From: Selenomonadaceae bacterium
GTDB lineage: Bacteria > Bacillota > Negativicutes > Selenomonadales > Selenomonadaceae
Direction of reading: 5' to 3'
Assembly: GCA_017484005.1 (NCBI GenBank)
Contig: JAFUTY010000070.1
Coordinates: 1 to 48,993 of the forward strand
Length of the DNA: 48,993 nucleotides
The position numbers and the translations under genes were made by a program. Below, piece after piece: positions 34,243 through 39,010 of this stretch (positions within the stretch are counted from its first letter, which is position 1; the number at the start of each line of letters is the position of its first letter). The notes beneath the pieces were generated by a model. That model had not been told where the DNA came from, ran no database searches, and saw only the letters and a program-made list of their open reading frames with translations.

Positions 34243-34737
34243 ATGAACGCCATCGGGAATTTGATTCTCAATCACCAAACTGCAATCATTCTATCAATTT
34301 CAATTTGTACACTCGGGCTATTGATTCTCACGATTTCTCTCAATTCAAAAATCAATCAAATGCGAGGACTCTATTCAAAGATGATGACTGATTCCTCCGG
34401 CGAGAGTATTGAAGAAATGCTCGTCACGAATTCTCAAAAACTCGAAAGAATTATAGATGATCAACGATTTCAAGAACGAGAGATTCGCGACATCAAAGAT
34501 CTTTTGCAAAATGCAATAACTCGTGTCGGGATTGTTCGATTCGCCGCTTTCGATGATGTTGGATCTGATTTGAGTTTTGCAGTCGCTCTGCTCGATGAAA
34601 ATAAAAATGGATTTCTACTCACGAGCATTTTCAGCCGATCAGAAGCTCGAAGTTATGTCAAGCCGATTGAAGCTGGTGCGTCGAATTACAAATTGATTGA
34701 TGAAGAAGTTCAAGCATTGCGGGAGGCGATGCGATGA
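34243..34737 (+). CDS. DUF4446 family protein
   Basis: This 164-residue protein has one N-terminal membrane segment (AIILSISICTLGLLILTISL), a charged helical stretch and a C-terminal domain with VGIVRFAAFDDVGSDLSFAVALLD and KPIEAGASNYKLIDEE, the DUF4446 hallmarks. Function is unknown; the family is common in Firmicutes. AAGGAG precedes the ATG. It overlaps the M23 peptidase gene by four bases. Confidence 0.85.
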   Translation: MNAIGNLILNHQTAIILSISICTLGLLILTISLNSKINQMRGLYSKMMTDSSGESIEEMLVTNSQKLERIIDDQRFQEREIRDIKDLLQNAITRVGIVRFAAFDDVGSDLSFAVALLDENKNGFLLTSIFSRSEARSYVKPIEAGASNYKLIDEEVQALREAMR

Positions 34738-35756
34738 CTCCTGAAGAAAAGGAATCAATCCTCGAGGACTTCAAAAAAAATCCGGATGAATCGAATCTCA
34801 AAGATATCAACGCGGAAGATTTGTCGCAAAATCGATATACAATTCGACTGACTCGAACTCAAGTTTTTGCCGCGATTGTATTTTTCATCGCCGCAGGATT
34901 ATCGATCGTCTTGGCAGTTGGATATGGAGCTTATCGAACGAGTCAGATTCGATCTATGACTTCAGAAATCAATTCACTTCGTCAATCGACTTTCACTCAG
35001 CAGGATCAAATTTTGAGATTGTCGAAAAAAGCATCGGATCTTCAAAATGAAATCGATCAATTGACTCAGCTCGAGCAAAGTTTACGTCGAGCATTTTCAG
35101 TTCAGCCGGCTAAGGATTCCGAATCGAAAGTTCCGGATGGGCAGGGCGGACCAATCTCATCGGTTATCGATATCAAGCAAGTCGCGAGCAATTTGACTTC
35201 AGCGCAGCGGAGATTTTCCGAGAGATCAGACAGCGTTCATGAATTGCAGCAAATTTTGAAAAATCAGCGCGAGATGTTTGATAAAAATGGTGCACTCGGA
35301 GTTTTCAGAACATATTCAATCGGAGATTCAGATTCATATTCTGGATATTTCGATCAGCCGTTCAATTTTGCTCGAAGCACCAGAGTTCCAGAAGGATGGC
35401 CAGCATCTGGAGTTGTAACCTCGCCATTTGGATTGAGATGGGGAGGCACTGATTTTCATCCGGGCATGGATATCGCAAATGACATGGGAACGCCGATTCT
35501 TGCGACGGCTGATGGAACTGTCGATTTTGCGGGATGGAATTCGGGCGGCTATGGAAACATGGTTGATATCGATCACGGCAATGGAATGATGACTCGATAC
35601 GCGCATGGATCTCAAGTCGTTGTCAAAGCTGGGCAACAGGTTCGAAAAGGACAATTGATAATGTACATGGGCAGCACTGGATTCAGCACTGGACCTCACG
35701 TTCATTATGAAGTCTGGGTTGATGGGCAGAGAGTCAATCCGGTGAATTATTTGTGA
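34734..35756 (+). CDS. M23 family peptidoglycan metallopeptidase, membrane-anchored
   Basis: A cytoplasmic N-terminus of about 43 residues is followed by one membrane segment (44-66), a coiled coil (72-125 and 150-185) and a LytM/M23 domain (220-340). Zinc ligands are intact: His242, Asp246 and His324, with His291 and His322 catalytic. It should cut peptidoglycan cross-bridges in the periplasm, unlike EnvC-type proteins that lack ligands. It is translationally coupled to DUF4446 (ATGA) and followed closely by the FkbM gene. Confidence 0.92.
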   Translation: MTPEEKESILEDFKKNPDESNLKDINAEDLSQNRYTIRLTRTQVFAAIVFFIAAGLSIVLAVGYGAYRTSQIRSMTSEINSLRQSTFTQQDQILRLSKKASDLQNEIDQLTQLEQSLRRAFSVQPAKDSESKVPDGQGGPISSVIDIKQVASNLTSAQRRFSERSDSVHELQQILKNQREMFDKNGALGVFRTYSIGDSDSYSGYFDQPFNFARSTRVPEGWPASGVVTSPFGLRWGGTDFHPGMDIANDMGTPILATADGTVDFAGWNSGGYGNMVDIDHGNGMMTRYAHGSQVVVKAGQQVRKGQLIMYMGSTGFSTGPHVHYEVWVDGQRVNPVNYL

Positions 35757-35767
35757 GGAGGAATTCG

Positions 35768-36926
35768 ATGAAAAATTTTGTCAAGACTTTCGAAAAAATC
35801 TTTCAAGATCAAAAAAGCAAACTTCTAACAAAGATTCGCAAGGAGAAAATTCCAGTTGCATGGTTTCAAACTCCATATGCCAACAAAGAACGTGCAAAAT
35901 CTGCCATGGATTCGCTCCTCAATGAGGGCACTGATGTTCGATATATGTTCATTGCGGACGAAAATTCTGCCCCCCCCCCCCCGAGAAAATCTTCAAATCT
36001 TTAATATCAACAAAATTGCTGAAGTTTTCCCGCGTCCGAAATATTTATTCATTTTTTCAGATCCCAAAGCATGTGCGTTCGTTGACAGATTAAAATCATT
36101 GGGAATTGAGTTGATTGAACTTGCAAGGGGCGGCGGCAATTCTTCATGTTATCTTGATCATATGTCGGATCTTTATGAAGTTTACAATTCGCTTATCGAT
36201 GAAGAAAGTCGTCGAGTTTTTCTGGCCTTCTTGCTTGGAAATTCTTCAACGCGAATCAGTGACTACATTTTTGATCCAATGCCACAATATTTTCTCCATG
36301 GATTCATGCCGCAAGCTGGAGATATATTGATCGATGGCGGAGCATTTGATGGCTCAAGTGCGTCAAAATTTAAAAAATATGGTTGCGATGTTTATGCATT
36401 TGAACTCGATAAATTGAATTTTGAGAATGCAAAATCTCGTGGAGATCGCGAGGGATTTGTTGTCGAAAATTTTGGACTCGGTGAACATTCACAACAAATC
36501 GATTATGTTGTAAGTGGCATGTCATCGCATACTAGCTCCAATGTTGCTACTACTAAAAATAAACAGGTTGGAAATTTGATTTCAATCGATGAATATGTTG
36601 AATCTAAAAATCTTCCGCGAATCGATTTTATCAAGCTCGATATTGAAGGATCTGAGCTCGATACTCTCAAAGGCGGCGCGATCTCAATTGCAAAATGGAA
36701 ACCACGACTTGCAATTTCTGCTTATCATAAATCTGAAGATGTTTATACGCTCGCGCAGTTTTTGAAATCGATTCGTCCGGATTATGAATTTGCGTTCAGA
36801 CATTATCCGACAAGTTTCGATAATGAACCAGCTATGTTTGGTGCAAACGCTAAAGAGTTTCTTGAAAGTCACAATCTTCCGCTGAAAATTCCATACGTTT
36901 GGGAAGCAGTTCTGTACGCAAGTTAA
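35768..36926 (+). CDS. FkbM family methyltransferase, interrupted by a C13 tract (phase OFF)
   Basis: The start (ATG 35768 after GAGGAGGAATTCG) opens a frame of 68 codons that enters a run of 13 C (35970-35982) and then hits TAA at 36004. The rest of the protein is in the next frame. With 12 C the two parts join into about 385 residues. The second part has an AdoMet-binding block (DILIDGGAFDGSSASKF), a YAFELDKLNF strand and IDFIKLDIEGSELDTLKGG, clear FkbM motifs. FkbM proteins O-methylate sugars or other small groups. The long homopolymer in the coding region is the usual sign of slipped-strand phase variation. A sequencing error in the C count is the main alternative. A second such tract is in the convergent gene at 37573-38673. 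Confidence 0.85.
35970..35982 (+). repeat. C13 homopolymer, probable phase-variation tract
   Basis: Thirteen consecutive C inside the FkbM gene. In this genome's moderate-GC, C-poor context such a run is exceptional. A count of 12 or 15 gives an open frame; 13 closes it. Confidence 0.9.
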
Positions 36927-36930
36927 ATTC

Positions 36931-36973
36931 AAAAAAAAAGTGGGCGATCAAAAATCGATCGTCCACTCTTTTT
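36931..36973. terminator. Bidirectional terminator between FkbM and acetyltransferase genes
   Basis: AGTGGGCGATC pairs with GATCGTCCACT, flanked by A9 and T5, with TTCGGA at 36975-36980. Confidence 0.88.
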
Positions 36974-36987
36974 ATTCGGAAAAATTT

Positions 36988-37554
36988 TCAATGAGGAACT
37001 GATTTCAAAAATTTTGCAGGAACTCCACCGACAACTGTATATGGCTCGACATCCTTCGTGACAACTGCTCCAGCCGCAACGACTGCCCAATCTCCAATTG
37101 AAACTCCAGCCAAAATCGTCGCGTTAGATCCGATCCAGACATTTTTTCCAAGTTTCACCGGCGCGTAATGATTCCGTCGATTGTTCCGAGGATCGAGATC
37201 ATGATTTATCGTCGCGATTACAGTATTGTGACCGATCAAACATCCATCGCCAATCTCGATTCCGCCTTGATCTTGAAATTTGCATCCGGAATTGAAAAAT
37301 ACATTTTTGCCGATTGAAATATTTTTTCCAAAATCAGCATAAAACGGTGGAAACATTCGAAAGCTCGGATCGATCGATTTGCCGGTGAGTTTTGACATGA
37401 TTTTAACGATTTCTTTCGGCGTGTGATAATTCGAATTCAAATCCATTGTGATTCGAATCGCCTCTTGACACAAATCGCGGAAGAATTTGAAACGCTCCGG
37501 ATTTTCTTCCAGCGATTCATCATAAAAACTTTGAATCACTTCATCGATTGTCAT
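36988..37554 (-). CDS. Hexapeptide-repeat O-acetyltransferase (Maa/LacA type)
   Basis: This 188-residue cytosolic enzyme transfers acetyl from acetyl-CoA to a sugar hydroxyl. It has the mac-type N-terminal helices followed by left-handed beta-helix hexapeptides (ISIGKNVFFNSGC; IEIGDGCLIGHNTVI; VWIGSNATILAGVSIG; WAVVAAGAVVTKDV), the catalytic His in TINHDLDP, and the C-terminal GGVPAKFLK. The sugar is not known. It is the second gene of a two-gene operon with a phase-variable radical SAM gene, so it may help decorate a surface glycan. The ribosome site is TTGGAGG. Confidence 0.9.
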   Translation of the reverse strand: MTIDEVIQSFYDESLEENPERFKFFRDLCQEAIRITMDLNSNYHTPKEIVKIMSKLTGKSIDPSFRMFPPFYADFGKNISIGKNVFFNSGCKFQDQGGIEIGDGCLIGHNTVIATINHDLDPRNNRRNHYAPVKLGKNVWIGSNATILAGVSIGDWAVVAAGAVVTKDVEPYTVVGGVPAKFLKSVPH

Positions 37555-37572: not shown

Positions 37573-38673
37573 TTAAACGCTCCACGATTCAGAATTTGGA
37601 TTTGGCAAATTCCTCCATTCAAATTGTCCGGGAGTTTCTACGCAATATTGACACATTTCAACAGGCTCATCTAATAAATCGATCATTTCCGTGAAATTTG
37701 GATTGTATACGTCGATCCAAGTTGAATTTGGTAATTTTCGAGGAGCATCTGGGAATTTTTCATTATATCTAGGTTGCAAAGCATCAATTGGACATCTGTA
37801 AAGCTTGCCATTTCTAAGAATTTTAGATCCCTTACAGCCGCAGATTTTCAATGCAGTCAATGGATCTGACAATCCAGATTCCTTTCGCAATATCGTTCGG
37901 AAAGTTCCCTTTGGGATAAATTGATGTGATATTGAATATTCGTTCAAGATTTTATCGATTTGATCTTTGGATTTTTCCATCGGCGGATAATCGCTAATGC
38001 AAAAAGACACATTTTCTCGAGACAAATATTTTAAAAGATCCGGCGTCAAATTTGGAATTAGAGTGCCATTCGTCAAAATATCGATAGCGATCACCGGAAA
38101 AATCTTTCGAACTATGTTGATATATTCATCAATATTTTTGACAAGGAGAGGCTCGCCGCCGACAAATCGTATCGCTGATAAATCACATTTGCGAGAGAAT
38201 TGTTTGAGATCGCGTTCAAATGTTTCGAGATTGTAAAACTCTTCCTTCGAATATAGCGGTGCGAAATGTGAACAGCCTTTACAACTCAAATTGCAACCGT
38301 CAATCAAATTGATTTCAATATATGGAAAGAAATATTTCTCAAAATCAAGCCAAGTCAGTGAATTGTTGACGAAAAAAAGATCAAAATATACCGCGATTTT
38401 ATCGACGCGATTCAATTTGAGCTTTCTGACAATCTCTTTAGATATTTTCATTTCTCCAACTGAGGATGAAACGATGATAGCGTCAATCGATCCAGCGCGA
38501 TAACGTCTAAGAAATTCGAAAAAATCAACGTTATCGATTCCGTCAATTTTTAAAGGATTTCCGAAAATTTGAGTTGAACAATCAATCTGTAAATTGTTGC
38601 CCCCCCCCCCGAGTTTTTTATCAATGAATTTTGACACAGTTCCAATTTTACTTCCACAAACTGTGATCTTCAC
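37573..38673 (-). CDS. Radical SAM protein with G10 tract (phase ON)
   Basis: The iron-sulfur motif C-x3-C-x2-C is CNLSCKGC (Cys127, Cys131, Cys134), followed by IRFVGGEPLL (AdoMet glycine motif) and Cys-rich C-terminal parts (CGCKGSK, RCPIDAL, CQYC) that may bind an auxiliary cluster, as in SPASM enzymes. The start is GTG 38673 with GGAGGAG, 20 bases after a strong promoter; an ATG at 38703 would lie in the promoter. Codons 22-25 are a run of ten G on the coding strand, read as four glycines in the present count. A gain or loss of one G would abolish the protein near its N-terminus. The reaction is unknown; the N-terminal 115 residues are an extra domain I do not recognise. Confidence 0.85.
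   Translation of the reverse strand: MKITVCGSKIGTVSKFIDKKLGGGGNNLQIDCSTQIFGNPLKIDGIDNVDFFEFLRRYRAGSIDAIIVSSSVGEMKISKEIVRKLKLNRVDKIAVYFDLFFVNNSLTWLDFEKYFFPYIEINLIDGCNLSCKGCSHFAPLYSKEEFYNLETFERDLKQFSRKCDLSAIRFVGGEPLLVKNIDEYINIVRKIFPVIAIDILTNGTLIPNLTPDLLKYLSRENVSFCISDYPPMEKSKDQIDKILNEYSISHQFIPKGTFRTILRKESGLSDPLTALKICGCKGSKILRNGKLYRCPIDALQPRYNEKFPDAPRKLPNSTWIDVYNPNFTEMIDLLDEPVEMCQYCVETPGQFEWRNLPNPNSESWSV
38601..38610 (-). repeat. G10 homopolymer, probable phase-variation tract
   Basis: Ten consecutive G on the coding strand (C on the plus strand) at codons 22-25 of the radical SAM gene, in frame as sequenced. Confidence 0.88.
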
Positions 38674-39010
38674 TCGGATCTCCTCCTCAAAATTTTTCTC
38701 GAGCATATATTTGAGACGTCTCGTTGTCAAAGAATTTCACTCAGAATTTTCACATTGAAGCTTAACTCGAATCTTAAAAACAGTTGAAAAGATCTTTTAT
38801 TCTATGGTAACATTCTCGGAACTTCTTCAAGGGAATTTCTCTTTGAAATCGGTCGAGTGGAACGGATTTTTTTATTCTTGATCGAAAAATTTCTTGGCGA
38901 GAGGTGATGCTTCAATCGCAATTATATTTTAATTCTGATTCGCCGATGCATTGAGATTCTTGAAGATGTGTCGAAACATTTCTAAGACATGATAAAGGGG
39001 GAAATTTTCA
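38674..39010. other. 337-bp divergent intergenic region
   Basis: Besides the minus-strand promoter at 38702-38730, a plus-strand candidate (TTGAAA, 18 bp, TAACAT at 38784-38813) would give the PTS IIC gene a 190-nt leader. In that leader TCTTCAAG near 38825 is complementary to CTTGAAGA near 38961, a possible long-range stem, and a T7 run lies near 38867. A 15-codon frame (MLQSQLYFNSDSPMH) has a ribosome site that is too close. No gene is called. Confidence 0.45.
38702..38730 (-). promoter_or_regulatory. Promoter of the radical SAM operon with palindrome in the spacer
   Basis: On the minus strand TTGACA, a 17-bp spacer and TATGCT. The spacer contains the perfect palindrome GAGACGTCTC (38713-38722), a likely operator position for a repressor. 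Confidence 0.7.

What the first reader, a model, noticed from the sequence alone, without database searches (positions are those of the whole stretch)
35768..36926. FkbM methyltransferase gene switched off by a C13 tract
Seen: 13 C at 35970-35982 separate an N-terminal frame with a proper start from the FkbM catalytic part in the next frame; TAA at 36004 closes the present frame. One C fewer joins them into about 385 residues. Known: homopolymeric C/G tracts in coding regions mediate slipped-strand phase variation, often of surface-glycan modifying genes. Inferred: methylation of a surface glycan or other surface molecule flips on and off in this organism. The second tract in the convergent radical SAM gene suggests a two-switch locus giving up to four surface states.
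Basis: partly seen in the sequence, partly recalled or inferred. Interest (0 to 1): 0.85.

Follow-up and report, generated by a model that had tools for sequence, protein, structure and literature searches.

The report
Poly-C switch in FkbM methyltransferase gene
In a bacterium related to Selenomonas, a run of 13 Cs puts a methyltransferase gene out of frame while a database protein identical to both halves reads through in frame, and the same genome holds 87 more such runs that likely act as random on/off switches, many in predicted surface-building genes.

Summary
In detail: C13 at 35970-35982 splits an FkbM methyltransferase between two frames; C11 at 38600-38610 lies in a convergent radical SAM gene that is in frame. 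A database protein identical to both halves (385 aa, P0004) sits on another contig, so two frame states exist. The site is a hot spot: among 51 loci examined, 17 further FkbM genes from 16 congeners carry C7-C12 there; with the window's gene, 8 of 14 that could be judged are out of frame. The larger finding is the genome: 88 C-tracts of 9 or more (chance about 3), lengths peaking at 12 with almost none at 7-8, and 82 of 11 or more against 0-36 in 379 other genomes of the class. Of 38 tracts with coding sequence on both sides, 11 are in frame. Nine others lie between -35-like and -10-like boxes. Pfam names glycosyltransferases, TonB receptors and flagellins near tracts. MutS and MutL are intact. 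Best reading: slipped-strand phase variation of a large contingency set in a lineage for which my searches found no report. Tract flanks follow a species-specific motif, unexplained. Live switching and the methylated substrate are untested.

The parts
35768..36004 (+). N-terminal ORF of the FkbM gene, ATG start, closed by TAA after the tract
   Evidence: residues 1-71 of P0004 match it at 100%
35970..35982 (+). C13 tract, predicted slipped-strand switch; at this length the two halves are in different frames
   Evidence: frame analysis
35983..36926 (+). FkbM methyltransferase body in the other frame
   Evidence: PF05050 and TIGR01444 above cut-off; 100% identical to P0004 over the 306 residues searched
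37573..38730 (-). radical SAM gene, convergent, in frame through its tract; probable start GTG at 38673 after a GAGGAGGAGATC-type ribosome-binding sequence (read by eye)
   Evidence: PF04055, 46.4 bits; intact identical P0124
38600..38610 (+). C11 tract (G11 on the radical SAM coding strand), second predicted switch, in frame at this length
36988..37554 (-). hexapeptide-repeat acetyltransferase-like gene between the two tract genes, no tract
   Evidence: PF00132, PF14602; run list
34734..35756 (+). M23 peptidase gene directly upstream, probably co-transcribed with the FkbM gene (inferred from spacing)
   Evidence: PF01551; adjacency
36928..36978 (.). inverted repeat between the convergent genes, likely two-way terminator (by eye, not scanned)

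Best explanation
A tract of 13 Cs holds this FkbM methyltransferase gene out of frame, and gain or loss of single Cs by replication slippage likely switches it on and off as one of up to 88 such predicted switches in the genome. Shown: the tract, the two frames, the stop-free gene body, a database protein identical to both halves that reads through in frame, tracts of 7-12 Cs at the same site in FkbM genes of 16 congeners, and 88 tracts genome-wide, many within reading frames and nine between -35-like and -10-like boxes. Inferred: that length changes arise by slipped-strand mispairing at high rate, that the out-of-frame form gives no active enzyme, that the product O-methylates a surface glycan, and that the neighbouring radical SAM gene switches independently.
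For: In-frame natural form: P0004, 385 aa, 100% identical, on a 109,116-base contig; the own genome has no second copy of this gene (4 FkbM matches). Radical SAM P0124 is intact with the same longest-contig length. Site: in 51 loci examined, 17 FkbM genes from 16 congeners plus the window's gene carry C>=7 at the same alignment position; 8 out of frame, 6 in frame, 4 undetermined. Genome: 88 tracts >=9, expected 2.7; 82 >=11, expected 0.12. Run lengths: 4:258, 5:44, 6:7, 7:1, 8:0, 9:2, 10:4, 11:18, 12:36, 13:18, 14:3, 15:5, 16:1, 19:1. Frames: 11 of 38 in frame, about one third. Promoter-like placing: 9 tracts read on the G strand against 1 on the C strand under one rule. A-runs >=11 number only 9, and MutS and MutL are full length, so a general repair defect is unlikely.
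Against: No reads were available, so mixed lengths within one population were not seen. The second assembly's DNA was not seen; its 12-C length is deduced from the protein. An internal start (for example TTG 35856, 356 aa) might give a product while OFF. A one-third in-frame share is also what decayed genes would give, and two congener FkbM genes (G050, G100) show a further frame break away from the tract. Six of the nine promoter-like tracts have spacers of 20-22 bases, beyond the usual 17, so they are either OFF or wrongly assigned. The surface substrate is unproven; 16 of 60 scanned tract-associated segments had no Pfam match.
Confidence: 0.88

Rival explanations
1. The 13th C is a sequencing or assembly error and the gene is always intact.
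For: Homopolymers are error-prone (recalled); the other contig reads in frame; 5 of 88 tracts lie within 100 bases of a contig end, expected 0.5.
Against: 27 of 38 scoreable tracts are out of frame, and out-of-frame FkbM genes recur at the same site in 7 congeners; scattered errors would hardly do this. The long tract itself is real in any case.
Confidence: 0.07
2. The genes are decaying pseudogenes and the tracts are by-products of relaxed selection.
For: About two thirds of scoreable tracts are out of frame; FkbM genes of G050 and G100 have a further frame break.
Against: The window's FkbM body is stop-free and conserved, an identical in-frame protein exists, tract lengths peak sharply at 12, and some tracts sit between promoter-like boxes.
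Confidence: 0.03
3. Programmed slippage of RNA polymerase or ribosome on the tract makes some full-length product in every cell, so this is leaky expression, not a switch. It could also coexist with a switch.
For: Transcriptional slippage on poly(A) tracts is described for Buchnera in PMC2831843 (passage seen).
Against: The frame differs between the window and P0004 and between species at the site; tracts also lie between promoter-like boxes, where slippage of this kind has no role.
Confidence: 0.06

Closest known systems
Haemophilus influenzae 86-028NP ntHI0694, FkbM-family methyltransferase gene with a (G)12 tract in its 5' end (PMC2651432, one passage seen)
   Same: FkbM-family gene with a 12-13-base C/G homopolymer near the 5' end; the authors suggest that the LPS may be O-methylated
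   Different: One gene of one strain in Gammaproteobacteria; here a site recurring across species of one genus and part of an 88-tract set
Poly-G/C phasomes of Campylobacter (PMC6321876, passages seen; PMC8355987, abstract start in the listings)
   Same: Poly-G/C tracts inside and between genes; SAM-dependent methyltransferases and radical SAM enzymes among the genes; ON share in draft genomes close to neutral drift
   Different: Median 20 tracts per C. jejuni genome in that paper (its length cut-offs differ from mine); here 88 of 9 or more with peak length 12, in a Selenomonas-related lineage with intact MutS and MutL
Neisseria phase-variable genes and promoters (PMC5084427, title and abstract start in a listing: 115 genes; promoter-spacer control as in porA and fetA is recalled)
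   Same: Repeats both in reading frames and, from recall, between -35 and -10 boxes; repertoire of similar size, though counted over several repeat types
   Different: Unrelated lineage; here I counted only poly-C/G, of one length class with a shared flank motif

Membership tests
FkbM-family methyltransferase | FkbM domain above curated cut-off | tested here: met
   PF05050 55.9 vs 22.7 bits; TIGR01444 59.7 vs 37.7; only PDB relative by profile at E<=0.01 is 2py6, 'Methyltransferase FkbM'
FkbM-family methyltransferase | S-adenosylmethionine-dependent O-methylation of a sugar | not testable with these tools
   no substrate data
Simple-sequence-repeat phase-variable locus | repeat longer than chance allows | tested here: met
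   88 tracts >=9 observed, 2.7 expected from base composition
Simple-sequence-repeat phase-variable locus | unit change alters frame or promoter spacing | tested here: met
   frames either side differ at 13 C; promoter-like spacers
Simple-sequence-repeat phase-variable locus | length or frame differs between close strains | tested here: met
   one pair only: window out of frame, P0004 in frame; DNA of the second not seen
Simple-sequence-repeat phase-variable locus | reversible high-rate switching with change of expression | not testable with these tools
   needs reads, colonies or proteomics
Multi-locus phasome | ten or more such loci (the review PMC11868660 speaks of ten or more genes), mainly surface functions | tested here: inconclusive
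   number met: 88 tracts; surface functions are the largest named share of 60 scanned segments, by family name only
Mismatch-repair-deficient mutator | loss of MutS or MutL and excess of all homopolymers | tested here: not met
   MutS in an 862-codon open frame, MutL in a 587-codon open frame; only 9 A-runs >=11

The most novel reading that the evidence does not exclude
The tracts are not chance expansions but are written and kept near 12 C by a sequence-specific process: in this species they share the context AAAnnTG-Cn-GAG on the C strand whichever strand is coding, and congeners use other contexts. Such a process would convert ordinary genes and promoters into switches across the genome.
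Probability: 0.12. Interest if true: 0.9.

Novelty: new member of a known kind. Interest (0 to 1): 0.62.

Why it matters
[quoted passage not shown] This genome's nearest named relatives, by one protein (RNase Y), are Selenomonas bovis, uncultured Selenomonas and Selenomonadaceae assemblies; its habitat and any pathogenicity were not tested. It carries 82 C-tracts of 11 or more, while 64 of the 65 other genomes of its genus that were searched have 15 or fewer. That makes the question testable inside one genus. It also gives an FkbM switch site shared by many species, and a flank motif that might show how such tracts are born.

Tried and rejected
General mismatch-repair defect: rejected (MutS, MutL present in full-length open frames; A-runs few). 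Tract as loop of a pair-specific inverted repeat: rejected, observed arm similarity 5.54 against 5.59 for re-paired flanks. Naming the organism through genome contigs: one irrelevant hit, Frigidibacter; RNase Y then gave Selenomonadaceae bacterium and Selenomonas bovis as nearest named, 77% (best 120 of 7997 listed). Structure: mean pLDDT 62.9; the proline run at residues 69-71 lies in a predicted coil, but fold matches were unspecific Rossmann-type proteins with TM-scores under 0.3 on the query and I do not use them. RNase Y (L110) as the gene switched by its upstream tract: rejected, because a terminator-like repeat and a nearer promoter-like sequence lie between (read by eye). Megablast against plasmids: no match. 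Segments scanned for L068, L094, L096, L110, L117 and L119 start more than 100 bases beyond the tract and may be neighbours, not the switched gene.

Full report
What is in the window. C13 lies at 35970-35982 and C11 at 38600-38610; the only other C or G run of 6 or more is a C6. From the ATG at 35768 the frame runs through the tract and stops at 36002-36004. The FkbM body is in the other frame and ends at 36926. The body matches the FkbM methyltransferase models above their cut-offs. The gene follows an M23 peptidase gene directly. Converging on it are an acetyltransferase-like gene and a radical SAM gene; the latter carries the second tract as G11 and is in frame.

A natural in-frame form exists. 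A search with the body alone returned P0004, 385 aa, 100% identical. Its first 71 residues match the window's N-terminal frame at 100%. Its contig has 109,116 bases, while the window's has 48,993, and the own genome shows no second copy of this gene (4 FkbM matches, two of them the halves of this gene). The radical SAM protein P0124 is 100% identical, with the same longest contig, and its glycine run is unchanged. P0008, 99.7% identical to this genome's C12 FkbM paralog, has a longest contig of 341,048 against 27,946 here, which again points to a second assembly of this species. The DNA of that assembly was not seen, so '12 C' is deduced from the protein.

The FkbM site is a hot spot in the genus. 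Searching 66 genomes of the genus gave FkbM matches in 57. I examined 51 loci: 30 handed out by the search, 20 that I picked with a bias towards matches cut or split at the N terminus, and one paralog already held; a few overlap. Seventeen FkbM genes from 16 other species carry 7-12 Cs in coding orientation at query residues 62-74 (its 19 rows hold two genes twice, and its rule put the window's own tract at residue 61, so I added that one by hand). With the window's gene that is 18. In 14 both halves could be placed: 8 out of frame (G000, G110, G073, G055, G050, G105, G092, G086) and 6 in frame (G112, G072, G087, G089, G058, one copy of G084); 4 could not be judged. Against a pure switch, the G050 gene shows a further frame break between residues 94 and 128, and G100's gene (tract elsewhere) near residue 115. 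A second cluster of tracts lies at residues 224-267 in 7 FkbM genes. This genome's C22 paralog has C12 near residue 91 and is out of frame; its C12 paralog has no C or G run of 7 or more in the stretch read.

The genome-wide set. The own genome (2,437,461 bases, 72 contigs, completeness 100, contamination 0.24) has 88 C-tracts of 9 or more on the two strands, against 2.7 expected from base composition, and 82 of 11 or more against 0.12. In 410 kb read around them the run-length spectrum falls from 258 (C4) to 1 (C7) and 0 (C8), then rises to 36 at C12. So these tracts look like a class of their own. Among 380 genomes of the class, own included, the next highest count of tracts of 11 or more is 36 (G065), then 15 in two genomes, one of which (G046) has all of them within about 1.1 kb; 152 of 380 have any. 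A-runs of 11 or more number 9. MutS and MutL lie in full-length open frames.

States and positions. With a rule that asks for 60 stop-free codons of coding character on both sides, 38 of 88 tracts could be scored: 11 in frame, 27 out, near the one third expected of freely drifting lengths. The radical SAM tract is not among the 38, its upstream side being too short. The 38 lie on either coding strand (25 as G, 13 as C). Under a rule of at most one mismatch to TTGACA and one to TATAAT with 15-24 bases between, applied to the table, 9 tracts lie in a spacer when read on the G strand and 1 on the C strand. Their spacers are 15, 16, 17, 20, 21 and four times 22; the long ones are either OFF states or wrong assignments. 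One clear example has TTGACA, a 17-base spacer with G11, and TATACT, in front of an 817-codon reading frame (L109).

Which genes. I scanned 60 tract-associated segments, picked by script, with Pfam: 16 had no match at E 0.001. Glycosyltransferase-type matches number 10 (GT2, GT8, GT11, GT61, group 1, and two DUF4422, whose role is recalled; one GT8 is under its cut-off), WcbI 2, WbqC 1, hexapeptide transferases 3, methyltransferases 4 including another FkbM, TonB receptors 2, flagellins 2, RTX-repeat proteins 3, radical SAM 3 (one under its cut-off), a solute-binding protein 1, a type ISP restriction-modification enzyme 1. The other 12 are mixed. Six segments, the second FkbM among them (L068, L094, L096, L110, L117, L119), start more than 100 bases beyond the tract and may be neighbours of the switched gene. 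In this set surface and glycan functions are the largest named share.

The flanks. On the C strand the tracts share the context AAAnnTG-Cn-GAG: G at -1 in 83% and G at +1 in 77% of 84 tracts (4 of 88 lacked flanks), in C-coding (17), G-coding (37) and unassigned (30) groups alike. TG before and GA after occur together in 30 of 84 tracts, but in 5 of 249 C4 runs and 0 of 51 C5-C6 runs. Partial samples from congeners show other, weaker contexts: G065 TG-Cn-T, G100 and G112 A/T-Cn-AC (36, 31 and 27 tracts of 42, 34 and 31 counted). Paralogy and promoter boxes may explain a part of this; I did not remove paralogs. It may mark how tracts arise. I leave it unexplained.

Mechanism. The most likely reading is slipped-strand phase variation. 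A C gained or lost during replication shifts the frame and so joins or splits the gene; in promoter tracts it changes the box spacing. Shown: tract, frames, an in-frame form, recurrence and the genome-wide class. Inferred: high-rate reversibility, loss of activity when out of frame, surface glycan as target, independence of the radical SAM switch.

Comparison with print. An FkbM gene with (G)12 in its 5' end was reported in H. influenzae (PMC2651432, passage), so the single switch is of a known kind. C. jejuni has a median of 20 tracts by that paper's cut-offs (PMC6321876, passages). [quoted passage not shown] My searches found no report for this lineage: Selenomonas + homopolymeric tract + phase variation 0 papers; Selenomonadaceae + phase variation 0; Selenomonas + phase variation 10 papers, none on this by title (listing only); none of the 30 listed of 177 names Selenomonas; of 14 papers, four hold Negativicutes with phase variation, one of them on invertons (PMC11892184, listing only); the 10 listed of 591 do not name Negativicutes. 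The library is open-access only and holds no preprints.

Noticed in passing
88 places in the own genome, e.g. window 35970-35982 and 38600-38610; loci L061-L128: Tracts share a flank context (AAAnnTG-Cn-GAG) on the C strand independent of coding strand; congeners show other contexts. Unexplained.
   Followed up: partly
L097 (G000:C58:1-3342), tract at 834: G10 tract in frame inside a type ISP restriction-modification gene, a candidate phase-variable DNA methylation system that could change expression of many genes at once.
   Followed up: partly
L081 (G000:C44) and L083 (G000:C47): C/G tracts upstream of, or at the start of, two flagellin-type open frames.
   Followed up: partly
FkbM genes of G085, G081, G078, G074, G071, G100, G087: Second cluster of C/G tracts at FkbM residues 224-267, G on the coding strand in 6 of 7.
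   Followed up: partly
G046:C9:3578-4659: Fifteen C-runs of 11 or more within about 1.1 kb of one contig in another genus of the family.
   Followed up: no
P0014 and P0126 (database proteins): An FkbM relative (53%) and a radical SAM relative (48%) both list a longest contig of 10,929 bases, hinting that the gene pair stays together in another species.
   Followed up: no
contig ends of G000: 5 of 88 tracts lie within 100 bases of a contig end, 0.5 expected: the assembly may break at tracts, from mixed lengths or repeated flanks.
   Followed up: partly
L110 (G000:C4), tract at 2502: TTGACA, a 14-base spacer with G12, and TATAAT precede a short stretch ending in a terminator-like repeat, upstream of RNase Y: possibly a small switched transcript (by eye).
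   Followed up: no
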